Assembly (NCBI RefSeq): GCF_018141425.1
Contig: NZ_CP058561.1
Coordinates: forward strand, 2,790,001 to 2,854,000
Reading direction: 5' to 3'
DNA from: Vallitalea guaymasensis
Lineage (GTDB): Bacteria; Bacillota; Clostridia; Lachnospirales; Vallitaleaceae
DNA length: 64,000 nucleotides
Shown here: piece after piece, positions 3,226 to 56,909 of the stretch
Numbering within the stretch: the first letter of the stretch is position 1
Layout: each line of letters opens with the position of its first letter
The notes under the pieces: model-generated
Database searches by the model: none
Told to the model about the DNA's origin: nothing
The model's input: only the letters and a program-made list of their open reading frames with translations
Program-made: the position numbers and the translations under genes

Positions 3226-3666
3226 TGGAATACATCTGGAACAGCAAATAGTTCAGAAGGTATTGTAGTTAGGACTAATAATAGTAATGTAAGAGGTACG
3301 TTAAAAACTACATTGAATGTTAGTAATGGAATGAAAATTCAACATTATATATGGAATATATGGGTAGATAAGTTTAATGTAGATAGTGAAACTAGAGAAA
3401 TGTTTTTAGCTGATTATTTAAGTATTGGTGATATTGAAGAAATAGACAAAGAGAAAAAAATAGTTTTTAATTCTGGAGCTAGTATTTACACTGAATATAA
3501 TAATTTATTTGAATCATGTTGTGATGTAGCAATAAATGCTGCTACTACTTCAATAATGGGGAATGTTAGGGTAGGTATTAACCTATATCCTTATTTTTAT
3601 GAATCAGGTACAAAACTAACGTGTTATAAGTGTACAAAATTATTTATTATATTTATAGCTAATTAA
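3226..3666 (+). pseudogene. 5'-truncated gene remnant, unrecognised
   Basis: After an in-frame TGA at 3223-3225 the frame runs open to 3666 with protein-like sequence: WNTSGTANSSEGIVVR, then IWVDKFNVDSETREMFLADY near the middle. The ATG at 3337 and TTG at 3313 lack a good RBS. The low-complexity Ser/Thr/Asn start looks like the inside of a secreted or fibre protein whose 5' part is gone. The last 8 bp overlap the convergent stalk gene. I read it as a decayed fragment left between stalk-gene insertions. Confidence 0.4.
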
Positions 3667-45491: not shown

Positions 45492-45521
45492 GGGACTAAA
45501 ATAGACAACGGTGGTATATTG

Positions 45522-45626
45522 AAATCATATATAGTGATAATTACTCTCGTTACGTTTGTTGCTTCTAGCTGTTTATAAGGGATGGCAACAAGCCGTAAAG
45601 GTCGTTATTATCACTATATATGATTT
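45522..45626. repeat. Structured intergenic element D
   Basis: Arms AAATCATATATAGTGATAAT (45522-45541) and ATTATCACTATATATGATTT (45607-45626) are perfect 20-bp inverted repeats. Inside, TTACG/CGTAA and TTGTTGC/GCAACAA make further stems. It resembles elements A-C in having a long outer stem around short inner hairpins, but lacks their conserved core. Could be an ncRNA, a mobile palindrome or a processing site. Confidence 0.55.
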
Positions 45627-45808
45627 TCTTTACATTTACCACTCTTTAGACAGTTAAAAAGTGATTTTAGCCTATAAAATCTTTACTGCTCGGTTTCATA
45701 GTTATTCCGTTATTGGAGAATATTATATGGTCAGAAATCTATCAATTAGCGTAATAATTAAATAAATCTTTTCAATAAAGTTAAATAATAGACTTTGTAG
45801 ACAATCGG

Positions 45809-45850: not shown

Positions 45851-45897
45851 ATGTATTATTGAGGCATATTGAAAACATGATTGAAATATCGAGCGTA

Positions 45898-45997
45898 AAT
45901 AGTATAGGGGAATATGGAGCAGTGAGCCATGGACGGCGAACTCAGCCCTTTAAACATGGACGTTTAATGGGCTGACGGAATATTCCCCTATACTATT
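45898..45997 (+). ncRNA. Structured intergenic element A (GGAC-loop family)
   Basis: Perfect 18-bp outer stem (45898-45915 with 45980-45997). Inside: GGAGCAGTGA, a GCC-ATGGAC-GGC hairpin, GAACT, then a CAGCCC/GGGCTG stem capped by TTAAAC-ATGGAC-GTTTAA. Element B shares the 5' flank (ATATCGAGCGTA), the core and the 3' flank (GCGACTGTT) but has compensated stem changes. Expression and strand are assumed; a palindromic mobile element is the alternative. Confidence 0.5.
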
Positions 45998-46068
45998 GGA
46001 GCGACTGTTGCCTACCAATATTATATCTCTACCAATTATTAGGAATTAACAAAAAAATAAAAAAAAAC

Positions 46069-46097
46069 TTGACATTTACCCTTTTATTCTATATAGT
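46069..46097 (+). promoter_or_regulatory. Promoter of the DAHP synthase leader
   Basis: TTGACA (46069-46074), 17-bp spacer, TATAGT (46092-46097). Transcription would start near 46104, ~70 nt before the leader peptide. Confidence 0.75.
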
Positions 46098-46173
46098 TAA
46101 GAACTAATAAAACAATTTTTAAAACAATACTACGAAATTATAAAATATAAAATATAGAATAAGAAGTGATATT

Positions 46174-46326
46174 ATGATAGATTTAAATAAGAACCTAAAC
46201 TCAAATTCATATTATTTTTACTTTTTTAGCTGGGGCTTTTACTTTTTTAGCGCTGGTTATTTTGCATTAAAAAAATTGAATGTATTTGAGAAAAACTATT
46301 ATAAGAAGCTAATAACGAATTTTTAA
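46174..46326 (+). CDS. Aromatic-rich leader peptide for DAHP synthase
   Basis: A 50-residue frame (ATG 46174, TAA 46324-46326) after a GAAGTGAT site. It contains the stretch YYFYFFSWGFYFFSAGYF: 13 of 18 residues are Phe, Tyr or Trp. Overall it has nine Phe, seven Tyr and one Trp. It lies between a consensus promoter and a Rho-independent terminator in front of the DAHP synthase gene, the classic layout of a transcription-attenuation leader. Stalling on Phe/Tyr codons when these amino acids are scarce would favour readthrough. Not an enzyme; likely made only as a sensor. Confidence 0.85.
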   Translation: MIDLNKNLNSNSYYFYFFSWGFYFFSAGYFALKKLNVFEKNYYKKLITNF

Positions 46327-46338
46327 ATGATGAAATTT

Positions 46339-46367
46339 AAAGAAGCTCTTAGGAGCTTCTTTTTTTT
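46339..46367 (+). terminator. Attenuator terminator upstream of DAHP synthase
   Basis: AAAGAAGCTC (46339-46348), loop TTAG, GAGCTTCTTT (46353-46362) and a T-run. The end of the leader frame has AAGAAGCT (46303-46310), a copy of most of the terminator's 5' arm, which gives a possible competing partner for the 3' arm. Confidence 0.85.
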
Positions 46368-46468
46368 ATATATTAATTAAGAATACTATGCGCAAAGTAT
46401 TTATTATAAGTAAATCAACTGTTGTTTTATAAATAAGAGCTTTATAAATATGAATGGAGGAATAACAA

Positions 46469-47458
46469 ATGGTTATAGTAATGAAAGCTAAAACACCAAG
46501 AGCAAATATTGATAAATTAATTAAAAAGTTAGAAGATATGGGATTAGGTGTCCATGAAACAATTGGGCAGAACTACAGTATATTAGGATTGATTGGAGAT
46601 ACAAGCAAATTAAATAAAGAGCAGATAGAAGTTTATGATGATGTAGAAAAAGTAATGAGAGTACAGCATCCTTTCAAATTGGCAAGTAGACTATTCCATC
46701 CAGAAGACTCAGTAATTACCGTTGGGAATACAAAAGTAGGTGGAGATAATCTAACTATCATAGCAGGTCCTTGCTCTGTTGAGACTGAGGAACAAATGAT
46801 AGAGGTTGCCAGAGATGTTAAAAGAGCAGGAGCTACTTTACTTCGTGGAGGGGCTTACAAACCTAGAAGTTCACCATATAGTTTCCAAGGACTTGGTGAA
46901 GATGGATTAAAATTGTTAAAGAAGGCAAGTGAAGAGACAGGTCTACCTATTGTAACAGAAGCAATCTGTTTAGATACAATAGATGTAGTTGCCAAATATT
47001 CAGATGTAATTCAAATAGGAGCAAGAAATATGCAGAACTTCGCGCTTCTTAAAAAAGCAGGAAAATTAGGAAAACCTGTTTTATTGAAAAGAGGTTTGAG
47101 TGCTACTATTGAAGAATGGTTAATGGCTGCTGAATATATCATGTCAGAGGGAAATGAAGATGTAATTTTATGTGAAAGAGGTATACGTACTTTTGAAACA
47201 TATACTAGAAATACTCTTGATCTAAGTGCAATACCTGTTATAAAAGAAATAAGCCATCTACCTATCATTGTTGACCCAAGTCATGCAACTGGTAAATGGA
47301 AAATGGTAAGACCTTTATCAAAAGGAGCTGTCGCAGTAGGAGCAGATGGTCTTATGATAGAAGTACACAATAATCCAGAATGCGCTTTATGTGATGGAGC
47401 TCAATCATTAAAACCATCAAAATTCAAGGAACTAATGGATGAGTTGAAGATCGTTTAA
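46469..47458 (+). CDS. aroF: DAHP synthase, type I-beta with regulatory N-domain
   Basis: 329 residues. An N-terminal ferredoxin-like domain (MKAKTPRANIDKLIKKLEDM, about 1-70) is followed by the catalytic barrel with AGPCSVETEEQM, LRGGAYKPRSSPYSFQGLG and VDPSHATGKW. First step of the shikimate pathway: phosphoenolpyruvate plus erythrose-4-phosphate. The N-domain in this class binds Phe/Tyr for feedback inhibition. The leader peptide and terminator upstream add transcription attenuation by the same amino acids. RBS GGAGG, 8 bp from the ATG. Confidence 0.95.
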   Translation: MVIVMKAKTPRANIDKLIKKLEDMGLGVHETIGQNYSILGLIGDTSKLNKEQIEVYDDVEKVMRVQHPFKLASRLFHPEDSVITVGNTKVGGDNLTIIAGPCSVETEEQMIEVARDVKRAGATLLRGGAYKPRSSPYSFQGLGEDGLKLLKKASEETGLPIVTEAICLDTIDVVAKYSDVIQIGARNMQNFALLKKAGKLGKPVLLKRGLSATIEEWLMAAEYIMSEGNEDVILCERGIRTFETYTRNTLDLSAIPVIKEISHLPIIVDPSHATGKWKMVRPLSKGAVAVGADGLMIEVHNNPECALCDGAQSLKPSKFKELMDELKIV

Positions 47459-47603
47459 TTATACTGAGATGAAAATGTTATGATTTGGTAACCTACCAAT
47501 TGGAAAAGTATGCTATAATTATGTTACCTAAATGAATATGATGTAACTTAGAGGTGGAAAAATAATTATTAAACAGTCTAAAATGACAGTAAGGGGGATA
47601 TTA

Positions 47604-48170
47604 GTGAATAAGAAGATAGTAATATTGTTAGTAAGTATTCTGGTAACTTTAAATATAGCAGCTGTTCCTGCATCAGCAGCTACTGATAGACAAAACTATG
47701 CAGGGGATCAGTTACATACACTTGGACTTTTAAAAGGTTATACTGATGGTACACTTGCATTGGATAATAATATTAGAAGATCAGAAGTTACAGCTCTCCT
47801 AGTAAGAGCATTAGGCTATAGCGACAAAGAAGTACCAGGTGAAGGGAAACAATTTAGTGATGTAAAAGCCGATTATTGGGCTGTTCCAGATATACAAAAA
47901 GCTTATAAATTAAAGTTGATTGTAGGAGATACTGGAGGAACATTCAGACCACTTGATAATATAAGTTATGCAGAAGTTGTAACCATATTGGTTAATGCAT
48001 TAGGTAAAAATGATAATCTTGAAGGAGAATGGCCAACCAACTATATTGATAGAGCAAAAGAAATAGGTATCATCCCTCAAGAGAACAACGGAGATATAAG
48101 AAGAAAAGTCACTAGAGGTGAAGTAAGTGTCTTAATATGGGATACCATATTAGTTAATCTTAATAAATAA
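47604..48170 (+). CDS. Secreted SLH-domain protein
   Basis: Start chosen at GTG 47604 behind AAGGGGG; ATG 47583 lies before that RBS. 188 residues: signal peptide (cut after ASA), then SLH repeats, of which two are clear ('LHTLGLLKGYTDGTLALDNN', 'IQKAYKLKLIVGDTGGTFRP') and a third is partial (RAKEIGIIPQENNGDIRRKV). SLH domains bind secondary wall polymers. With nothing else attached, this is a stand-alone wall-binding protein. Confidence 0.85.
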   Translation: MNKKIVILLVSILVTLNIAAVPASAATDRQNYAGDQLHTLGLLKGYTDGTLALDNNIRRSEVTALLVRALGYSDKEVPGEGKQFSDVKADYWAVPDIQKAYKLKLIVGDTGGTFRPLDNISYAEVVTILVNALGKNDNLEGEWPTNYIDRAKEIGIIPQENNGDIRRKVTRGEVSVLIWDTILVNLNK

Positions 48171-48186
48171 AATATTAAATAATAAA

Positions 48187-48247
48187 TGGACTCTGTTAAG
48201 CCTGCTGATGTAAACATCAGTAACAGCTACCAAGAGTCTGTTTTTTA
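48187..48247 (+). terminator. Long hairpin terminator after the SLH gene
   Basis: Nested stems: GACT/AGTC, CTGTTA/TAACAG and CTGATGT-AA-ACATCAG, followed by TGTTTTTTATT. Confidence 0.7.
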
Positions 48248-48281
48248 TTATTATAAATGATATTTAGTAATATCGAGCGTA

Positions 48282-48382
48282 AATAGTATAGGGGAATATG
48301 GAGCAGTGAGCCATGGACGGCGAACTCAGCAATGTTAAACATGGACGTTTAATTTGCTGACGAAATATTCCCCTATACTATT
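48282..48382 (+). ncRNA. Structured intergenic element B (GGAC-loop family)
   Basis: The outer stem is identical to element A (48282-48299 with 48365-48382), and so is the core GGAGCAGTGA plus GCC-ATGGAC-GGC hairpin. The inner stem is CAGCAA/TTGCTG where A has CAGCCC/GGGCTG: both strands changed, pairing kept. The apical hairpin is again TTAAAC-ATGGAC-GTTTAA. Strand and transcription are unproven. Confidence 0.5.
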
Positions 48383-48628
48383 TTCGCGACTGTTAGGTTG
48401 ATAATTAAACCCTCAATTTCCCATAAAACATATTATTCAATTGTTTTATAGTATATTCTACAAAAAATAGTTTGATTTTAATTACATAATTTTCCAATAT
48501 TTTTTTTATATTAGTGTTAAAATACTTAAGAGGGATAAGTGTATATTAGATTTTATATTGGACAAAATAAATAAAAGCACTAAAATAAGTAGAATCATTA
48601 ATATAATTAAATAAGGAGTTGTTTTGAT

Positions 48629-49132
48629 ATGCGTAATGTTACATCTGATGTACTTGTTGCATATGCTTCCAAACATGGGAGTACCGAAAAAATAGCGCAC
48701 TGGATTGGAAAAGAGATCAGAGGAAATGTAGATGTACTAAATGTAAATAACGTTCATAATCTAAATTATGATTATATTATATTGGGAACACCTATATATG
48801 AACACGAACCTCTTCCAGAAATGAGTAGTTTTATCAATAGAAATAAAGACCAGCTGGAAAACAAGAAAAAATCTGTCTTTGTAGTTTCTTCTGATAATGA
48901 AGTAAGATCAAAAAGAGAAATGAATATTGAGGCGTTTACTAATATCATTCCAGGAGAAGTTAATCAAACTGCAGTATTTGCAGGAGAAATCGACAATAGC
49001 GAGTTAAGTTCCAAAGAGTTAGAGAGTGTAAATAGTTATATGAATTCTATTTCAAAACCCACAGGTAGTTATAGTAAATTGAATGAGAAAAAATGCAGAG
49101 AATATGGTAAATCACTTAATAGGTTTATTTAG
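48629..49132 (+). CDS. Flavodoxin-domain protein
   Basis: 167 residues with the FMN phosphate loop VAYASKHGSTEKIAHWIG at the start and 'YDYIILGTPIYEHEPLPEMS' as the next binding loop, as in flavodoxins of the protoporphyrinogen-oxidase (HemG-like) type. Electron carrier or small oxidoreductase; substrate unknown. Monocistronic. Confidence 0.8.
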   Translation: MRNVTSDVLVAYASKHGSTEKIAHWIGKEIRGNVDVLNVNNVHNLNYDYIILGTPIYEHEPLPEMSSFINRNKDQLENKKKSVFVVSSDNEVRSKREMNIEAFTNIIPGEVNQTAVFAGEIDNSELSSKELESVNSYMNSISKPTGSYSKLNEKKCREYGKSLNRFI

Positions 49133-49165
49133 CGTATAGCTTTATGATTAATGCATCTAGTAAGC

Positions 49166-49197
49166 CTATATATACATCTTAAGTTATGTATATATAG
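49166..49197 (+). terminator. Hairpin after the flavodoxin gene
   Basis: CTATATATACAT and ATGTATATATAG form a 12-bp perfect stem, followed by ACTTATTATTTG. Confidence 0.5.
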
Positions 49198-49346
49198 ACT
49201 TATTATTTGTAATGATATTTATCCAAAAGATATGATAAAAAAGTACAACTTATGCATTCACAAAATTTACTAATATATCATTTTTTTACAAAAGAAAAAA
49301 TAAATTATAATAAGGGTTAGAATTTATATAGAGGGAGGATGCTCTA

Positions 49347-51131
49347 ATGGAGGAACCAAAGAATAATAAGAAAAAAAGAAAATGGTTACTAGTAACAATA
49401 ATCACTATAATAGTAGTTATTGTCGCTTTAGCATGCTATTTTTTTATAAGATACAAAAATATGGAAAAGGTTGTAAAAAGAGATGTCATCTACGAAGGAA
49501 TAAGTATTGAGGGGATAGACATAGGTGGTTTATCTAAAGAAGAAGCATTAGACAAAATGAAAGTGATTATCGATGAAAAAATATTTGATAAAGAAATAAA
49601 AATATCATATGAAGATAAGATATATACTAAACCATATAATTACTTTGAATTCAAATCCAATTATATAGAAATTGTAGATAAAGCCTATAATCTATTCAAG
49701 ACAGGGAAATTAAAAGAACGATATAATAAAATTAATAAATTAAAAGAAGATAAAATTGATTATAGTGTAGAAAACGTATATAATGAAGAGAAAATAAAAG
49801 AATTTGTTAGTTCTATCAAAAATGACTTTAATATAGAGCCAAAAAATGCTATAATACATAGAAAAAATAGTGAATTTATTATAGACAAAGAAGTTAATGG
49901 CTTAAAATTGAATGTTGATACGAACGTAGCCAATCTAAAAAATGCGATTGACAATTTTAAACAAGAATTAGAACTTGTTGTTGAGGTAACAAAACCAAAA
50001 TACACCAAAGAATATTATAGCAATATAAAAGAAGTAATAGGTGAATATAGCACTGCACACAATAATAATAAAGCAAGAACTCAGAATCTAAGAATTGCGT
50101 GTAATAAAATAAATGGAACCATTTTATATCCTGGTCAAGACTTTGCTACCCATGTAGCAATAAGTCCTATAAGTTCAAAAAATGGGTATAGAGAAGCCCC
50201 TATAATCATTTCAGGCGAAGTAAAAGATGGTCTTGGTGGAGGAATATGCCAAGTAGCTACTACTCTATATAATGCTGTTCTAATGGCAGAACTGAAAGTA
50301 ATTGAAAGACAAAATCATTCTATGCCAGTATCTTATATAGAAAAAGGCAAAGATGCTACAATGTCAGGTAGTCATGTGGATTTTGTTTTTGAAAACAGTA
50401 GCAACTATCCAATATATATTGAAAGTTTTGTATATGGTGGTAAACTCTGTATGAGATTATTTGGTAACGACGAGAGAAATAGTAGCAGAAAGATTAAATT
50501 CCAATCAGAAATCATTCAAAAGATATCTCCACCAAAAGCTACTTATATAACAGATAGTTCCTTGGCACCAGGTGCAAAGGTTACAAAAAGAAAAGCAATA
50601 AATGGTTATAAAGTAAAATTATATAAATTAATTTATGTAAATGATAAATTAACGGATAAACAATTAGTAAATACCAGTTATTATAAGCCAGTTGGTGCTA
50701 TAATAAGAGTAGGCAAGAAAAAGGTAGCTGAAGCAAATGAACCTGTTGAAACTATGGAAGCGACTAATGTAATAGAGGAAGAAGAAACAGTAGAAACATT
50801 GAAGACTATAGATGATGATGAAAAAATTACTGAAGATACTGTAAAAGGTACTGAAGAAATGGAAGAAGAAATTGTAGAAGATATAGAAGAAGATATAAAA
50901 ATAGATATAGAAAAAGATGTAGAAGAAGATATAGAAAAGAATACTGAAAATAGTATTTCAGATGATAAGATGGATAATAATTCAGAAGAAGAATTAGAAA
51001 AAGCCATAGATGATACTGTTTCGATTCAAGAAGATTCAGAAAACATAGAAGATATGGAAAAAAATGAAGAAGCTACAGACGAAGGAGTCGATAAAGATGA
51101 AGCTGGGAAAAGTACCGGAGACAGTACTTAA
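49347..51131 (+). CDS. VanW-family membrane protein with acidic tail
   Basis: 594 residues. Membrane anchor at about 11-32 (KWLLVTIITIIVVIVALACYFF), YoaR-type peptidoglycan-binding-4 domains (about 60-215), then the VanW domain (LRIACNKINGTILYPGQDFA; 'GLGGGICQVATTLYNAVL'; 'MPVSYIEKGKDATMSG'), a G5-like stretch, and a ~125-residue tail made mostly of Glu and Asp. It likely acts in the wall. The last 35 bp overlap the next gene, whose RBS lies in the acidic-tail codons. Confidence 0.85.
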   Translation: MEEPKNNKKKRKWLLVTIITIIVVIVALACYFFIRYKNMEKVVKRDVIYEGISIEGIDIGGLSKEEALDKMKVIIDEKIFDKEIKISYEDKIYTKPYNYFEFKSNYIEIVDKAYNLFKTGKLKERYNKINKLKEDKIDYSVENVYNEEKIKEFVSSIKNDFNIEPKNAIIHRKNSEFIIDKEVNGLKLNVDTNVANLKNAIDNFKQELELVVEVTKPKYTKEYYSNIKEVIGEYSTAHNNNKARTQNLRIACNKINGTILYPGQDFATHVAISPISSKNGYREAPIIISGEVKDGLGGGICQVATTLYNAVLMAELKVIERQNHSMPVSYIEKGKDATMSGSHVDFVFENSSNYPIYIESFVYGGKLCMRLFGNDERNSSRKIKFQSEIIQKISPPKATYITDSSLAPGAKVTKRKAINGYKVKLYKLIYVNDKLTDKQLVNTSYYKPVGAIIRVGKKKVAEANEPVETMEATNVIEEEETVETLKTIDDDEKITEDTVKGTEEMEEEIVEDIEEDIKIDIEKDVEEDIEKNTENSISDDKMDNNSEEELEKAIDDTVSIQEDSENIEDMEKNEEATDEGVDKDEAGKSTGDST

Positions 51132-52086
51132 GAGATCTATATTTAAACAACTTAGTACACATAGAGATGAAGTCATTGTTAGACCTAATGTTGGTGAAGA
51201 TTGCTCAGCAATAAAATTTGATAAAGATGAAGTATGTGTTGTATCCACTGATCCTATAACAGGTGCAGTAAAGGATATTGGTTCACTAGCTGTTAACATA
51301 ACAGCCAATGACTTAGCTTCTAGTGGTGCTGAACCTGTAGGCATCTTACTTACATTACTTCTTCCAGAAGGTTTTATGGAAGAAGAATTGAAAGAAATCA
51401 TGAAAGATGTTAATTATCAATGTAATCTATTAAATATTGAGGTAATGGGCGGTCATACAGAAGTAACTAATGCAGTGAATAAGCCTATTATCTCAGTAAC
51501 TGGAATTGGTAAAGCCCATGAAAACAAGCTAGTCCTAACAGGAAAAGCAGAAGTGGGACAAGACATAGTTATAACAAAGTGGGCAGGACTTGAAGGTACT
51601 GCAATTATTACTAAAGATAATGAGGATAAGCTAAGAGAACATTTTAATTCAGATCTTATTGATAATGCAATGAAGCTAGGTGATTACATATCTGTTGTAG
51701 AAGAAGCAAAAATAGCAGTGGAATATGGAGCCACATCCATGCATGATGTAACAGAAGGTGGTGTGTTTGGAGCTTTATGGGAAGTCGCCGCTTGTTCTAA
51801 CGTAGGTTTAGAAGTTAAACTTGAAGATATTCCTATTAAACAAGAAACCATTGAGATATGCGAATATTATAATCTGAATCCTTATAAATTAATTTCTAGT
51901 GGATGTATGATTATTACTACATATAATGGGGAACTGCTGGTAGAAAAGTTAGAAAAAGCAGGAATTGCTGGTTCAGTAATAGGTAAAATAGTAGAAGGAA
52001 AAGATAAGATAGTTATTCAATCTGATACCAGAAGAGCATTGACCCCACCAAAGACAGATGAATTGTATAAAGTTATTAATGCCTAG
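51097..52086 (+). CDS. AIR-synthase-related (HypE-like) protein
   Basis: Start ATG 51097 with AAGGAG at 9 bp, overlapping the VanW gene by 35 bp; an upstream ATG at 51064 has no RBS. 329 residues: 'VRPNVGEDCSAIKFDKDEVC', 'TDPITGAVKDIGSLAVNITA' and 'GGHTEVTNAVNKPIISVTG' are the ATP-binding signatures of the PurM/HypE/ThiL family. No hydrogenase or hyp genes are near, so a true HypE role is unlikely. Its reaction is unknown. Confidence 0.8.
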   Translation: MKLGKVPETVLKRSIFKQLSTHRDEVIVRPNVGEDCSAIKFDKDEVCVVSTDPITGAVKDIGSLAVNITANDLASSGAEPVGILLTLLLPEGFMEEELKEIMKDVNYQCNLLNIEVMGGHTEVTNAVNKPIISVTGIGKAHENKLVLTGKAEVGQDIVITKWAGLEGTAIITKDNEDKLREHFNSDLIDNAMKLGDYISVVEEAKIAVEYGATSMHDVTEGGVFGALWEVAACSNVGLEVKLEDIPIKQETIEICEYYNLNPYKLISSGCMIITTYNGELLVEKLEKAGIAGSVIGKIVEGKDKIVIQSDTRRALTPPKTDELYKVINA

Positions 52087-52119
52087 ATTAATAAATAAAT
52101 GAAAGTGGAGGGACTATAT

Positions 52120-52602
52120 ATGAGACAAGAGATTTTAGGTATATTAGAACAGAATTGCAAGGTAACAGTTGATGATCTGGCCACAATATTAGATAATCCA
52201 AAAGAAGATATTGCAAAAGAGTTGACACAACTGGAAAAAGAACAGATTATATGTGGTTACCATACAATAATTAACTGGGATAAAACAAATATTCATAAGG
52301 TAACAGCATTGATTGAAGTAAAAGTAACACCACAAAGAGGACAAGGTTTTGATAAAATAGCTGAAAGAATCTATAGATTCAAAGAAGTTACAGCTGTTTA
52401 TCTAATGTCAGGTGGTTTTGATTTAACAGTTATAATAGAAGGAAAAACAATGAAAGAAGTAGCATTATTCGTAGGACAAAAGTTAGCACCTCTTGAATCA
52501 GTATTAAGTACAGGTACTCACTTTGTACTTAAAAAATATAAAGACCATGGTATTATATTAGAAGAAAATAAAAAAGATGAAAGAATGGCGGTGACACCAT
52601 GA
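52120..52602 (+). CDS. Lrp/AsnC-family regulator
   Basis: Start ATG 52120 after GTGGAGGG; the ATG at 52099 lies before that site. 160 residues: winged HTH (ILGILEQNCKVTVDDLATIL), then the RAM/AsnC effector domain (ALIEVKVTPQRGQGFDKIAE; 'VYLMSGGFDLTVIIEGKTMK'). ATGA overlap with the aminotransferase, the common Lrp-aminotransferase pairing; it probably regulates that gene in response to an amino acid. Confidence 0.9.
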   Translation: MRQEILGILEQNCKVTVDDLATILDNPKEDIAKELTQLEKEQIICGYHTIINWDKTNIHKVTALIEVKVTPQRGQGFDKIAERIYRFKEVTAVYLMSGGFDLTVIIEGKTMKEVALFVGQKLAPLESVLSTGTHFVLKKYKDHGIILEENKKDERMAVTP

Positions 52603-53768
52603 GGTTAGAAGACAAGCTATCAAAAAAAGTAAAAGTTATTCCACCATCTGGTATTAGAAAATTTTTCGATATAGTATCTGAGATGGAAGATGCTATTTCA
52701 TTAGGTGTAGGTGAACCTGATTTTGACACTCCTTGGAATATTAGGGAAGAAGGAATATATTCTCTAGAAAAAGGAAAGACTTTTTACACTTCCAATTCAG
52801 GTATGTTAGAGCTTAGAGATGAAATATGTAAATATCTAAAAAGAAAATTTGGATTAAACTATGATTACAAGTCAGAAACTTTGGTGACAGTTGGAGGTAG
52901 CGAAGGAATAGACCTAGCATTCAGAGCCCTTATCAATCCTGGTGATGAAGTATTAATTCCAGAACCTTGCTTTGTATCTTATAAGCCTTGTGCTTTTTTA
53001 GCAGGGGCAACTCCTGTTACTATACCATTAAAAGCGGAAAATGAGTTTAGATTAACACCAGAAGAAGTTGAAGAACATGTAACAGATAAGACAAAGATAT
53101 TAGTATTATCATTCCCTAATAACCCAACAGGTGCTATTATGGATAAAGAAGATTTACAAAAGATAGCTGAAGTAGCTATAAAGCATGATTTGATTGTTTT
53201 ATCAGATGAAATCTATGCAGAACTTACATATGGTGAAAAACATGTTTCTATAGCATCTCTAGATGGTATGAAAGATAGAACAATAGTCATAAACGGATTT
53301 TCAAAAGCATATTCCATGACAGGTTGGAGAATGGGTTATGCAGTAGGTCCAAAAGAAATAATAGGACCTATGACCAAAATACATCAATATGGAATTATGT
53401 GTGCGCCTACTACAAGTCAATATGCAGCTATTGAGGCAGTGAAAAACAGTGATTCAGATGTAGAAGAAATGAGAAAAGCATATAATGGTAGAAGAAAAGT
53501 AATGATTGAAGGTTTCAGAAGTATGGGACTTGAATGTTTTGAGCCATTAGGAGCTTTTTATCTGTTCCCATCGATTAAAAGAACAGGTTTAACATCAGAG
53601 GAATTCGCTAATAGATTACTTATGGAAGAAAAAGTTGCTGTAGTACCAGGTACAGCATTTGGTGACAGTGGTGAAGGATTCATCAGATGTTCTTATGCTT
53701 ATAGTATCAATGATTTGAAATTGGCTATTAGTAGAATAGAAAAATTTGTAGGAAGATTAATCAAGTAA
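52599..53768 (+). CDS. Class I PLP aminotransferase
   Basis: 389 residues: 'SLGVGEPDFDTPWNIREEG', 'SFPNNPTGAIMDKEDLQKIA', and the PLP lysine in INGFSKAYSMTGWRMGYAVG (about residue 233). Subfamily I-alpha (AspC/PatA-like), acting on aspartate or aromatic amino acids. Co-translated with the Lrp regulator upstream. Confidence 0.92.
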   Translation: MRLEDKLSKKVKVIPPSGIRKFFDIVSEMEDAISLGVGEPDFDTPWNIREEGIYSLEKGKTFYTSNSGMLELRDEICKYLKRKFGLNYDYKSETLVTVGGSEGIDLAFRALINPGDEVLIPEPCFVSYKPCAFLAGATPVTIPLKAENEFRLTPEEVEEHVTDKTKILVLSFPNNPTGAIMDKEDLQKIAEVAIKHDLIVLSDEIYAELTYGEKHVSIASLDGMKDRTIVINGFSKAYSMTGWRMGYAVGPKEIIGPMTKIHQYGIMCAPTTSQYAAIEAVKNSDSDVEEMRKAYNGRRKVMIEGFRSMGLECFEPLGAFYLFPSIKRTGLTSEEFANRLLMEEKVAVVPGTAFGDSGEGFIRCSYAYSINDLKLAISRIEKFVGRLIK

Positions 53769-53792
53769 CAAACAATATTAATATAATTATAA

Positions 53793-53835
53793 TAGACTCT
53801 GTTTAGTAAAAAAAGCTAAATAGAGTCTATTTTTA
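53793..53835 (+). terminator. Terminator after the aminotransferase
   Basis: TAGACTCT (53793-53800) pairs with AGAGTCTA (53822-53829), with an inner TTTAG/CTAAA extension, then TTTTTATTTTA. Confidence 0.8.
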
Positions 53836-53939
53836 TTTTATTATAAATCATGCTTCCTTAGTTTTGTGGATTGTTGTTGTATAATTTGTTTGGTGAATAT
53901 AGCTTTAATTGTATGTTAATGATTCCAATAATTACATTG

Positions 53940-53968
53940 TTGATAAAATTAAAAATAAATGATATAAT
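53940..53968 (+). promoter_or_regulatory. Promoter of the FN3-like secreted protein gene
   Basis: TTGATA (53940-53945), 17-bp spacer, TATAAT (53963-53968), ~60 bp before the start. Confidence 0.65.
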
Positions 53969-54027
53969 AATTTGAAAATAAAATATAATTTAAAAAAACA
54001 AACATTAAAGAAAAAGGAGATAGTTTT

Positions 54028-54933
54028 ATGAAAAAAGTATTTATGATGGTATTGATTGGGGTTTTAATGTTATCTAATGTGAATATTTGTAGGGCAGATA
54101 CAGGACCTATTCAGGTTCAAGGACTTATTACTATTCCTGAAGGTTATGAAGATGAAAGCTTTACTATAACAACAAATATCTACAATAATGGTACAGGTTA
54201 TAGAAACGTAACTATAATAATACAAGACAATGATATTAACCTAAGTGTTGATAAAACTCAACTAAGAATACCAGGTAATCAAGGTATCAATATAAAAATT
54301 ACTGGGACATACCCAAAAGCAGATAACAACAATATATTTGCTAATTTGAAGATTGTGGATGATCTTAATTATACAAATGACCAAGAGATTCATTTTTTTG
54401 CTCCAAGTATTTTGAAAAAAGATACTGACGATCCAAATGACCCTACAGATCCAACAGACCCTACAAATCCTACATATCCAAGTTCCAGACTATCACAGGT
54501 TACCAATGTTCAGATTCGTTATGATGAAGCAAAACAATCTTATATAGTCACTTGGGATCCTGTAAAAAATGCAAAAGGATACATGATAGAAATGTACAAA
54601 AATACAAGTGATAATAGAGATCAATATAAAAATGTATTAACGAACCAAGTAGAATTCAAAACATGTGAAGTGGGAAAATGTAGAGGTTTCAGTAAAGTAA
54701 TATTCAAAATATATGCATATAGTCCTAAACGTTTAGCTAGTCATAGTATTGCATCATGGTGTTCAACTGCTAGGAGGAGTGGGAAGAATTTTGGTACAAT
54801 GGATTGGTATGAGTATATAGAACAAGAATCTGAGAATACTCAACCACGAAGGGGTACAGGTAGTCATGCTGGAAATACAGGAAATACAAATACAGGAAAT
54901 GGTAGCAGTACTAGAAGACCTAGTCGTCGATAA
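54028..54933 (+). CDS. Secreted protein with Pro/Thr linker and FN3-like domain
   Basis: 301 residues: signal peptide (cut after CRA), a beta-sandwich domain of ~110 residues (VQGLITIPEGYEDESFTITT), a DP(T/N) linker (DPNDPTDPTDPTNPTYPSS, about 135-155), an FN3-like domain (VTNVQIRYDEAKQSYIVTWD) and a Gly/Asn/Thr-rich, Arg-ended tail. A wall- or surface-exposed protein of unknown role. No anchor motif seen. Confidence 0.7.
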   Translation: MKKVFMMVLIGVLMLSNVNICRADTGPIQVQGLITIPEGYEDESFTITTNIYNNGTGYRNVTIIIQDNDINLSVDKTQLRIPGNQGINIKITGTYPKADNNNIFANLKIVDDLNYTNDQEIHFFAPSILKKDTDDPNDPTDPTDPTNPTYPSSRLSQVTNVQIRYDEAKQSYIVTWDPVKNAKGYMIEMYKNTSDNRDQYKNVLTNQVEFKTCEVGKCRGFSKVIFKIYAYSPKRLASHSIASWCSTARRSGKNFGTMDWYEYIEQESENTQPRRGTGSHAGNTGNTNTGNGSSTRRPSRR

Positions 54934-54963
54934 GGTTCTGTAATAGCCATTAACCAGTAAACT

Positions 54964-55010
54964 AAAAGCCCTCTAGATAATATTTATTTATATTAATCTA
55001 GAGGGCTTTT
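54964..55010 (+). terminator. Strong convergent terminator
   Basis: AAAAGCCCTCTAGAT (54964-54978) and ATCTAGAGGGCTTTT (54996-55010), a 15-bp perfect stem with A and T flanks. It serves the gene before it and can also serve the minus-strand Fur-family gene. Confidence 0.85.
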
Positions 55011-55047
55011 ATGTTTACACAGGAGTAGTTATATACTCGTCTGTTTA

Positions 55048-55464
55048 TTATTTGTTGTTCTTACAATTTGCACATACTCCATAAAAGAATATTTTTTCAT
55101 ACATGATTTCAAAATCAGTATCTTCTTCAACATATTTCTTAAGATTCTCCAATTTCATAGTGTCCAAGTCAAAAACCTTGTGACATTCTAAGCATATCAT
55201 GTGTGGATGAGCTTTGACATTGGCATCATATCTAAAGCTGTCTTCTCCTACATTGAATTCTTGAACTAATTCTGCTTTTTTTAGAGTGTCTAGAGTTTTA
55301 TATACAGTGGCTAAACTCATTGTTGGATGTGTTTCTTGTAAGCATTTATAGATATGTTCTGCACTAGGATGCTCTTTGCTGTCATATAATATTTTGAATA
55401 TAGCGATTCGTTGAGGAGTAACTTTTAATTTGTGTGCTTTTAATAGCTCAGCTATATGTTGCAT
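55048..55464 (-). CDS. Fur-family regulator, PerR type
   Basis: Start ATG 55464 behind AAGGAGA. 138 residues: winged helix (KVTPQRIAIFKILYDSKEHP; 'MSLATVYKTLDTLKKAELVQ'), metal-binding 'HPHMICLECHKVFDLD', and two zinc-site CxxC pairs (CLEC, CANC). The sequence order fits PerR, the peroxide sensor, more than Fur or Zur. A 14-bp AT palindrome sits 17 bp upstream of the start, so it may autoregulate. Confidence 0.85.
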   Translation of the reverse strand: MQHIAELLKAHKLKVTPQRIAIFKILYDSKEHPSAEHIYKCLQETHPTMSLATVYKTLDTLKKAELVQEFNVGEDSFRYDANVKAHPHMICLECHKVFDLDTMKLENLKKYVEEDTDFEIMYEKIFFYGVCANCKNNK

Positions 55465-55481
55465 ACCACAGTCTCCTTTCA

Positions 55482-55495
55482 ATAATAATTATTAT
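55482..55495 (-). promoter_or_regulatory. Candidate Per/Fur box
   Basis: ATAATAATTATTAT is a perfect palindrome resembling the PerR consensus TTATAATNATTATAA. It lies directly upstream of the regulator's RBS. Confidence 0.5.
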
Positions 55496-55565
55496 CTAGT
55501 AACTATTATACTATACTTATATAGTTTGTCAAGTTTTATAAAGGTATTTGAAATAGTTGGAATAA

Positions 55566-56504
55566 TTATTCTGATAGACTTGAATTACTTTTTCTATAAT
55601 TTCCAGGTGACATGCCTACATTTTTTTTGAAATCATTGCAAAAATAGTATTCGCTATTAAAGCCCACTTCTTTAGCTATTGTTGACATATCTTTACTAGT
55701 ACATTTTAATAGATATGCAGCTTTTTTTAGTCTAACTTTTTTAATATATTGATTCACAGTTTCGCCCACTGAATTCTTGAACAGTCTAGAAAGGTGACTA
55801 TAACTTACATGGACAGAATTAGCTACATCATTGACGTTGATATCTTGATAATAGTTATCTTCTATGAACTGTATAGTGTTGATGACAATATTGTTATCAA
55901 ATGAATCATCTTTACTTCCTATATTGGATTTCAACTCTGATAAATCTTGGTTCGCATATTTAGACAGCTTAAGAACAATCTGAAAAAAGGCTAATTGAAG
56001 TTCTAATTCAGAAAATCCTTGTCTACCTAGCTCTAATAGATTCAATACTCCATTAAGAATAGTACCATCATCTGTCAGAGGTTCTGAACCAGTGGCGTAT
56101 ATAGATTCTATCAATTGCTTTGATTTGATTAGATTTAATTGTTCATTATTAAAAGCACTGTTAGTCACAATCTCCCAGCGCATAGAAAAACCAGTATGTC
56201 CAATTCCATCTTCTTGACAATGAGAATGTAATACTCCAGGTGCTAATGTATAAAACTGCCCTGGAGTAATTTTACGTTTTATTCCGTTAGATGTGGTGAA
56301 AACATAATTATCGGTTATATAATGAAATTCAAAGAAAGAATGTTTATGCTTGCTCACATTCCAATCAGGATCAGTATCCATATAATGAATACCTAATATC
56401 TTTAACTGAATATTGTTTACTAATATATCTTTATAACATATCTTATTTAATAGCATGAAATCATCTTCATAATCTGATAAATCAATTTTTATATTTTCTC
56501 TCAT
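55566..56504 (-). CDS. AraC-family regulator with cupin-like sensor
   Basis: 312 residues. N-terminal cupin-type half (HKHSFFEFHYITDNYVFTTS; 'ITPGQFYTLAPGVLHSH'), C-terminal AraC HTHs (INVNDVANSVHVSYSHLSRL; 'DMSTIAKEVGFNSEYYFCND'). Probably regulates sugar genes; the URO-D-like gene upstream is the nearest candidate target. RBS AAAGG. Confidence 0.88.
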   Translation of the reverse strand: MRENIKIDLSDYEDDFMLLNKICYKDILVNNIQLKILGIHYMDTDPDWNVSKHKHSFFEFHYITDNYVFTTSNGIKRKITPGQFYTLAPGVLHSHCQEDGIGHTGFSMRWEIVTNSAFNNEQLNLIKSKQLIESIYATGSEPLTDDGTILNGVLNLLELGRQGFSELELQLAFFQIVLKLSKYANQDLSELKSNIGSKDDSFDNNIVINTIQFIEDNYYQDINVNDVANSVHVSYSHLSRLFKNSVGETVNQYIKKVRLKKAAYLLKCTSKDMSTIAKEVGFNSEYYFCNDFKKNVGMSPGNYRKSNSSLSE

Positions 56505-56683
56505 ACAGTTACAGCCTTTCTATTAAATATTTATTATATGTTACTTATACAGTATACCAAATATAAATATTCAATACAATAAACTATAACTTGATTTATT
56601 CAATTTACTATAAAGCTAAAATAGCCAATAGTCCTTTTACTAGAAGAAAAGTGTTTTGTGATTATATTGACGGTTACTTCGTA

Positions 56684-56853
56684 GCAAAATAGTATATGTA
56701 TATGTGGAGTAGTGAGGCAGGACGCCGAACCCAGCATTTAATCTGACAGCCCTACTGGACTGTCAGAAATAATAATGGACTCGATGTCCATTATTATTTG
56801 TCGAGTTCAGGACGAACAAGTAGCTGGCGGAACATATACATATACTATTTTGC
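56684..56853 (-). ncRNA. Structured intergenic element C (GGAC-loop family)
   Basis: Perfect 22-bp outer stem (56684-56705 with 56832-56853). The core GGAGTAGTGA, GGC-AGGAC-GCC hairpin, GAACC, CAGC...GCTG-GCGGA matches elements A and B, with compensated pairs in the small hairpin. It holds three extra hairpins: CTGACAG/CTGTCAG, a 14-bp one at about 56767-56799, and GTTC-AGGAC-GAAC. The core shown reads on the plus strand; the feature sits between two minus-strand genes, so the transcribed strand is uncertain. Confidence 0.5.
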
Positions 56854-56909
56854 AAAAACCAAGTCAGAACAAAACATTTTTTCTGACCTACTGGTAATAT
56901 AATTTATAA

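What the first reader, a model, noticed from the sequence alone, without database searches (positions are those of the whole stretch)
45898..56853. New family of structured elements with covarying stems and repeated GGAC loops
Elements A (45898), B (48282) and C (56684) share GGAGYAGTGA-[hairpin]-GAACY-CAGC...GCTG. Stems change in a compensated way: CAGCCC/GGGCTG versus CAGCAA/TTGCTG, GCC/GGC versus GGC/GCC, and a completely different inner outer-stem that still pairs perfectly. Within each copy two hairpins carry the same loop: ATGGAC twice in A and B, AGGAC twice in C. This points to selection for RNA structure. GGA in hairpin loops is what CsrA binds, so a CsrA-sponge RNA is one speculative role; a palindromic mobile element is another.
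Basis: partly seen in the sequence, partly recalled or inferred. Interest (0 to 1): 0.78.

Follow-up and report, generated by a model that had tools for sequence, protein, structure and literature searches.

The report
High-copy two-GGA-loop RNA element family
Three short stretches in this bacterial genome belong to a family of folded RNAs, present in about 95 copies here, each with two loops that look like docking sites for the regulator protein CsrA; the kind is known but unexplained, and its abundance and spread stand out.

Summary
In detail: A, B and C are real, correctly placed and far beyond chance. They are three of about 95 copies in this genome, in at least four subfamilies (76 copies examined). 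They are not a wholly new family. Subfamily T1 (A, B) is of the Rfam TwoAYGGAY kind (RF01731): a T1 and a T4 sibling pass Rfam's threshold, while A and B score below it; C has no match and has AGGAC pentaloops. The CsrA-sponge idea was published for TwoAYGGAY in 2014 (PMC4333381, passages).

New here: (1) strand-specific RNA-level selection: stem mismatches on the GGA strand are G·U, not A·C (13:1 distinct events here; 71:18 in 108 named-contig copies; control repeats 19:30; a third set, 7:5, showed none). (2) In-place compensation at loci with shared flanks. (3) A(N)GGAN in both loops of 76/76 copies. (4) CsrA in 19 of 19 element-bearing genomes, against 225 of 392 sampled. (5) Turnover: congener G003 is collinear but lacks A, B and C.

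Best reading: a dispersed, still-spreading family of CsrA-binding decoy RNAs. RNA structure is well supported; transcription and CsrA binding are inferred.

The parts
45892..46003 (+). Element A, subfamily T1: whole core (P1-P2-P3 three-way junction)
   Evidence: R2 match 108.3 bits, E 5.2e-24 (the alignment A4 behind R2 holds no row of A itself, but R1, which aligned A4, was built with A and B); fold z -6.9
45898..45915 (+). A: P1 outer stem, 5' arm; pairs with 45980-45997
   Evidence: sequence; fold
45980..45997 (+). A: P1 outer stem, 3' arm
   Evidence: sequence; fold
45926..45937 (+). A: P2 hairpin GCC-AUGGAC-GGC (loop 45929-45934), first candidate CsrA site
   Evidence: sequence; fold
45943..45974 (+). 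A: P3 hairpin CAGCCC...GGGCTG with loop AUGGAC at 45956-45961, second candidate CsrA site
   Evidence: sequence; fold
48276..48388 (+). Element B, subfamily T1: whole core; P1 arms 48282-48299 / 48365-48382; GGA loops 48313-48318 and 48341-48346
   Evidence: R2 109.1 bits, E 3.5e-24; Rfam RF01731 37 bits, E 0.003, below its threshold of 43; fold z -7.9
56682..56855 (+). Element C, subfamily T2, long form: core; P1 arms 56684-56705 / 56832-56853; AGGAC loops 56719-56723 and 56809-56813
   Evidence: R2 55.6 bits, E 3.5e-11; no RF01731 match up to E 5 or E 1; fold z -8.7
56743..56799 (+). C: two-hairpin insert in P3 (CTGACAG...CTGTCAG and AAATAATAATGGAC-TCGAT-GTCCATTATTATTT); a long form is seen in 23 of 51 T2 and 3 of 20 T1 copies examined
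56643..56659 (+). C: extra outer arm of the T2 unit (GAAGAAAAGTGTTTTGT), partner about 56869-56883
   Evidence: conserved in the T2 flank alignment; MFE fold, roughly
56869..56883 (+). C: partner of the extra outer arm (ACAAAACATTTTTTC)
56622..56895 (+). C: approximate limits of the conserved T2 unit (TAGCCAATAGT... to ...TTTTCTGACCTACTGG)
   Evidence: column conservation over 51 T2 copies; limits set by eye

Best explanation
A, B and C are copies of a dispersed family of structured RNAs of the TwoAYGGAY kind. A long outer stem (P1) clamps a three-way junction that holds two short hairpins, each with an A(N)GGAN loop, the shape that CsrA recognises. One RNA would offer two sites to one CsrA dimer. 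The dispersed copies together would act as a distributed CsrA decoy (sponge) or buffer, alongside FliW. SHOWN: structure, covariation, RNA-strand-specific selection, loop constancy, high and variable copy number, csrA in the genome. INFERRED: transcription, CsrA binding, effect on the free CsrA pool, and how copies spread.
For: Structure: on A4 (31 rows, fitted to model R1) 27 of 30 pairs vary on both sides; 97.3% of cells pair against 61.7% shuffled and 36-40% slid. RNA strand: P1 mismatches on the GGA strand are GU 16: AC 1 in 76 own-genome copies (13: 1 distinct events, p 0.002) and 71: 18 distinct contexts (71: 16 with a narrower cut) in the outer arms of 108 of 127 pattern copies from named contigs (p 1e-8, 2e-9; 8 dropped near contig ends, 11 by the arm filter); 104 other inverted repeats in the same contigs give 19: 30. 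In-place compensation: in 16 groups of copies sharing both flanks, 254 outer-arm pair comparisons changed on both sides and stayed paired, 24 changed on one side and stayed paired, 24 hold an unpaired cell (comparisons within a group are not independent). Within T2: 8 distinct double changes, 5 GU, 3 unpaired; within T1: 6, 4, 1. Loops: 76 of 76 copies carry A(N)GGAN in both, though the searches that found them favour these letters. CsrA: 19 of 19 element-bearing genomes have PF02599, against 225 of 392 sampled (hypergeometric 2e-5; 11 of 11 genera against 110 of 174, 0.005); outside the own family 8 of 8 against 204 of 370, 0.008. Own genome: csrA beside ORFs that look like fliW and flagellin (named by eye). 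Prior: the CsrA motif was reported in TwoAYGGAY.
Against: No transcript data. No excess of promoter- or terminator-like sites around A, B or C over shuffles. Orientation to neighbours is only weakly sense in the own genome (++ 37, -- 17, +- 10, -+ 12; p 0.009 for 37 v 17) and random in named-contig copies (48 of 84 upstream sense, 37 of 84 downstream), so many copies would need their own promoter. The GU excess was absent in a third set (47 copies of relatives, 7: 5, p 0.77). The CsrA co-occurrence is not corrected for phylogeny, motility or genome size: 11 of the 19 are in one family, where 21 of 22 sampled genomes have CsrA. One congener (G003) keeps csrA with a single element. C has pentaloops, less like the AYGGAY hexaloop.
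Confidence: 0.55

Rival explanations
1. A palindromic mobile element (MITE/REP-like) with no cellular role; its structure is kept because transposition or an RNA intermediate needs it.
For: Copy number in six congeners 95, 68, 31, 27, 21 and 1; subfamilies of near-identical cores (23 T2 copies of equal length, mean 96.3% identity); G003 collinear but without A, B and C, G001 without B; close inverted and tandem pairs; 72 of 76 copies outside predicted ORFs, in both orientations.
Against: Old copies do not decay: copies sharing both flanks keep pairing while both arms change. T2 cores stay at 96.3% identity while their own 45-nt flanks fall to 75% (5') and 82% (3'), shuffled baseline 61%. Y1/REP-type transposase is absent in G001 and G002, which hold 31 and 68 copies, and most frequent (16 matches, some fragments) in G003, which holds one. 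No target duplication or carrier gene found. No plasmid match for C; among 62 viral-contig pattern hits the best R2 E-value is 0.19.
Confidence: 0.22
2. A trans-acting structured RNA that binds something other than CsrA (another protein or a small ligand).
For: Strong conservation also of the junction (GGAGYAGTGA, GAACYCAGC) beyond what a bare GGA-loop sponge would seem to need.
Against: Both loops keep the A(N)GGAN core in 76 of 76 copies; 19 of 19 element-bearing genomes sampled have csrA.
Confidence: 0.13
3. A cis-acting mRNA element (3'-UTR stabiliser, terminator or processing site, or 5' leader) of the neighbouring genes.
For: Intergenic; slight excess of sense orientation in the own genome (47 of 76 upstream, 49 of 76 downstream). 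Rfam types RF01731 as cis-reg, although its discoverers' table marks it as probably not cis-regulatory.
Against: 17 of 76 own copies and 22 of 84 named-contig copies are antisense to both neighbours. No terminator was scored at A, B or C; the only one found (46339-46362) lies 335 nt past A. Constancy of two GGA loops is not explained.
Confidence: 0.1

Closest known systems
TwoAYGGAY RNA (Rfam RF01731, clan CL00106)
   Same: Same architecture: outer stem, junction, two hairpins with AYGGAY loops; A, B and two higher-scoring own-genome copies match its model end to end. Weinberg et al. 2010 list it for human gut, gamma-Proteobacteria and Clostridiales (PMC2864571, passages).
   Different: A and B score below its threshold. 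C has no match and AGGAC loops; of the three T2 copies scanned one (L015) scores 31.6 bits, two nothing. Copy number (about 95 here, 8-28 in the six genomes) and dispersal are not in the passages I read.
CsrB/CsrC, RsmX/Y/Z CsrA sponges
   Same: GGA hairpin loops in pairs; known to sequester CsrA (PMC4333381, passages).
   Different: Those are one or a few genes with many sites each (recalled); here two sites per copy and dozens of dispersed copies.
REP/BIME elements with RAYT transposases
   Same: Short intergenic palindromes in many copies and close inverted pairs (recalled).
   Different: Two element-rich congeners have no Y1-type transposase match; structure is selected at RNA level, on one strand.
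Aln1a-c of Alteromonas and CsrR1/R2 of Alcanivorax
   Same: Proposed CsrA-binding GGA-rich sRNAs in marine gamma-Proteobacteria (PMC5864184, PMC9788540, passages).
   Different: Two or three loci each, as told there; homology to the present elements was not tested.

Membership tests
TwoAYGGAY (RF01731) | Score at or above the gathering score (43 bits), for A, B and C themselves | tested here: not met
   A 33.2 bits, B 37 bits, C no match. So none is filed as a formal Rfam member
TwoAYGGAY (RF01731) | The same score, for the subfamily of A and B (T1) | tested here: met
   One T1 copy, 4338020 (L046), 43.5 bits; also one T4 copy, 2049154 (L040), 46.1 bits. A and B are thus TwoAYGGAY relatives by descent
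TwoAYGGAY (RF01731) | Two hairpins with AYGGAY loops | tested here: met
   Met in A and B (AUGGAC twice). Not met in C (AGGAC twice), nor on both sides in any of the 51 T2 copies
TwoAYGGAY (RF01731) | Same overall fold over the whole model | tested here: met
   A and B match model positions 1-168; C only through R2, 1-112: a divergent relative
CsrA-sequestering RNA | GGA in hairpin loops, in pairs | tested here: met
   76 of 76 copies; searches favoured these letters
CsrA-sequestering RNA | csrA present in the genome | tested here: met
   Own genome; 19 of 19 element-bearing genomes
CsrA-sequestering RNA | Is transcribed and binds CsrA | not testable with these tools
   No expression or binding data held
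REP/RAYT element | A RAYT/Y1 transposase in the genome | tested here: not met
   PF01797: no match in G001 and G002 (31 and 68 elements); 6 in the own genome
MITE | Precise insertion with target-site duplication | tested here: inconclusive
   Sites empty in G003 at A, B and C, but intergenic flanks too diverged to define ends

The most novel reading that the evidence does not exclude
A SINE-like bacterial element whose product is a CsrA trap: a structured RNA that multiplies in the genome and sets, by its copy number (1 to 95 in congeners), how much free CsrA the cell has. Selfish spread and a regulatory dosage effect would then be one and the same trait, in Clostridia and in Marinobacter.
Probability: 0.25. 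Interest if true: 0.87.

Novelty: new variant of a known kind. Interest (0 to 1): 0.62.

Why it matters
TwoAYGGAY has been an orphan RNA since 2010, with a CsrA-binding proposal since 2014 whose validation I did not find in the searches named below. The data here show RNA-level selection on a defined strand, dozens of copies per genome in two distant lineages, and CsrA in 19 of 19 element-bearing genomes. That makes the CsrA-sponge hypothesis directly testable and raises the possibility that a repeated element tunes a global regulator by its copy number. It also shows that the Rfam model sees few of the copies: 6 of about 95 in the own genome at E <= 0.001 in a search with strict filters and 39 candidates scored, 2 of them above threshold.

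Tried and rejected
Rejected: REP/RAYT mobilisation. Phage or plasmid carriage: among 62 viral-contig pattern hits the best R2 E-value was 0.19; plasmid blastn of C gave no match. Terminator role: none scored at the elements. Promoter in T2: C has TTGACG-17-TAGTAT at 56667-56695, but those letters are no better conserved than their surroundings (by eye), so not claimed.

Led nowhere: precise insertion ends; a class-wide sample added no new lineage (3 of 391, all known); dating copies against G005 was ambiguous because G005 lacks a 12 kb stretch there and is rearranged around A, B and C, where it holds no element. Shared sites (40 loci of relatives against the 76 own copies): G005 6 of 7 examined, of 21 in that genome (five by both flanks, one by one flank); G001 1 of 11 by both flanks; G002, G003, G004, G009 and G035 0 of 22.

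Limits: one search counts 95 own-genome matches but its list is cut; I examined 74 listed plus 2 found by pattern, so about 19 were not examined. R2 scored at most 9 candidates a genome and missed G048, which RF01731 finds and which also has CsrA. Searches are taken to be the same 392 genomes (same size, same handles). The 108 copies lie in 102 loci: 58 Marinobacter by title, 9 other, 35 with no title shown. Of the 16 shared-flank groups, 13 hold a Marinobacter title, two a clostridial one, one no title shown. Three T1 copies with a length change were dropped. The ORF calls behind searches are simple scripts, 20 of 89 copies overlapped a predicted ORF, which in GC-rich DNA may be spurious, and 84 had both neighbours.

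Full report
WHAT WAS CLAIMED AND WHAT IS THERE. The three elements are present at the stated places with the stated stems and loops. The core pattern GGAGYAGTGA-GGAC-GAAC occurs 36 times in the 5.63 Mb genome, never in the reversed-pattern control. A covariance model made from 18 short copies, A and B among them (R1), counts 95 copies in this genome and 68, 31, 27, 21 and 1 in five congeners. I collected 76: T1 20 (with A and B), T2 51 (with C), T3 3 and T4 2. T2 is part of a longer conserved unit of about 210-275 nt with an extra outer stem, and 23 of 51 T2 and 3 of 20 T1 copies are long forms with a two-hairpin insert in P3.

IDENTITY. At Rfam's gathering score the window shows only rRNA and tRNA. 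At a looser threshold B matches TwoAYGGAY RF01731 with 37 bits, A with 33.2. Two other copies of this genome, 2049154 (T4) and 4338020 (T1), pass the threshold, so subfamily T1 is of the TwoAYGGAY kind by Rfam's own criterion, while A and B themselves stay below it. C is related by the shared junction and by R2 (55.6 bits; no T2 row of the own genome went into R2), not by Rfam's model; one other T2 copy (L015) scores 31.6 bits there. An exact pattern search over named genomes stopped at 120 stretches; of the 80 titles shown 61 are Marinobacter. Five Marinobacter genomes hold 28, 18, 13, 16 and 16 strict-pattern matches and Saccharospirillum 9, two of them at one place. Rfam scores a Marinobacter copy at 36.8 bits, below threshold.

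IT IS SELECTED AS RNA. On the diverse alignment A4, 27 of 30 pairs change on both sides and 97.3% of cells pair, against 61.7% in shuffles and 36-40% when slid by 1-3 columns (A4 was fitted to the model, which favours it). A palindromic DNA element would also show this, so I used a strand test: a G·U pair on one strand is an A·C mismatch on the other. On the GGA strand the own-genome stems hold 16 GU and 1 AC (13 and 1 distinct; p 0.002). In 108 of 127 pattern copies from named contigs the outer arms hold 71 GU and 18 AC in distinct contexts, or 71 and 16 with a narrower cut (p 1e-8 and 2e-9). Other inverted repeats in the same contigs, read on an arbitrary strand, give 19 and 30 (p 0.15). A third set, 47 copies of relatives, gave 7 and 5, no signal. 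Compensation happens in place. Sixteen groups of copies share both flanks; in them 254 outer-arm pair comparisons changed on both sides and stayed paired, 24 changed on one side and stayed paired, and 24 hold an unpaired cell, 6 of these without change. Within T2 there are 8 distinct double changes, 5 GU and 3 unpaired; in T1 6, 4 and 1. Of 108 outer-arm 15-mers 105 are distinct, with a mean identity of 37%, yet paired.

WHAT IT MAY BIND. Both loops are A(N)GGAN in 76 of 76 copies: hexaloops on both sides in 18 of 20 T1, pentaloops on both sides in 47 of 51 T2. The searches that found the copies favour these letters, so the constancy is partly built in. CsrA binds hairpins with GGA in the loop, usually in pairs, and Gardner and Eldai proposed this for TwoAYGGAY (PMC4333381, passages). 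csrA is present once, next to ORFs that look by eye like fliW and flagellin. In a sample of 392 genomes of the order, R2 (E <= 1e-5) rings in 19 and CsrA in 225; 19 of 19 have CsrA (2e-5 by genome, 0.005 by genus). Eleven of the 19 belong to the own family, in which 21 of 22 sampled genomes have CsrA; outside it the figures are 8 of 8 against 204 of 370 (0.008). The genomes are related, so these are indications, not a test corrected for descent. A class-wide sample added no lineage.

WHERE IT SITS AND HOW IT SPREADS. 72 of 76 own copies overlap no predicted ORF of 80 aa or more; neighbours are ++ 37, -- 17, +- 10, -+ 12. In named-contig copies orientation is random. A lies upstream of a promoter-like site at 46069-46097 and B upstream of one at 48559-48586, so neither looks like a leader of the next gene. 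G003, where R1 finds one element, is collinear over this region but lacks A, B and C; G001 lacks B; G005 is rearranged there and holds no element at these places. Yet 6 of 7 G005 elements examined have an own-genome counterpart in place, against 1 of 11 for G001 and 0 of 22 for five more distant genomes. So copies come and go on the scale of species, but are also kept. Y1/REP-type transposases do not follow the elements: 0 in G001 and G002, 16 matches in G003.

MECHANISM. I commit to a dispersed family of two-site CsrA-binding RNAs that together buffer CsrA (0.55). Structure, strand and loop constraint are shown; transcription, binding and effect are inferred. A purely mobile palindrome (0.22), another ligand (0.13) and a cis-acting UTR element (0.10) remain; the mobile reading and the decoy reading can both be true.

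LITERATURE. Searches for TwoAYGGAY (7 papers, 5 listed), RF01731 (4), CsrA with Clostrid, small RNA and sequester (52, 20 listed), Marinobacter with CsrA and small RNA (2) and two broader ones (17 and 277 papers, 10 and 12 listed) showed me no experimental test of TwoAYGGAY and no report of its high copy number. I saw listings and, for eight papers, passages (the last, Rfam 12.0, does not name the family). Most subscription papers are not held, so absence here is weak.

Noticed in passing
window 45498-45729: Another dispersed repeat of about 230 bp just upstream of element A; parts of it match many places in congener G005, four in G003 and one in G001, at 73-90% identity.
   Followed up: no
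window 46174-46362: A 50-codon ORF rich in Tyr and Phe, then a terminator hairpin (46339-46362), just before the 46469-47458 ORF that looks by eye like a DAHP synthase: a probable Tyr/Phe attenuator.
   Followed up: partly
window 56667-56695: In C a promoter-like TTGACG-17-TAGTAT whose second hexamer lies inside the 5' arm of P1; similar letters occur in several T2 copies.
   Followed up: partly
G000:C1 1188201/1188414, 3501226/3501489, 4236454/4237272; G002:C42 12494-12946: Close inverted pairs of elements of different subfamilies, and a tandem triplet with a step of about 170 bp in G002.
   Followed up: no
L274 (G000:C1 604950-605804): A T2 copy lies 332 bp from one of five equal-scoring Y1 (IS200-type) transposase genes; the other four are not that near any element listed.
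   Followed up: no
L315 (G005:C79 74106-84528): At the site of element B the near relative G005 holds an extra 10 kb with ORFs of 1879 and 997 aa and no element.
   Followed up: no
G001:C17, G004:C1, G035:C6: Two CsrA-family genes in one genome: about 2 kb apart in G001 and G035, about 50 kb apart in G004; one of the two is short (60-65 aa).
   Followed up: no
L213 2245-2673: A divergent pair of elements near a cobalamin riboswitch (3281-3547) in a contig whose title was not shown.
   Followed up: no
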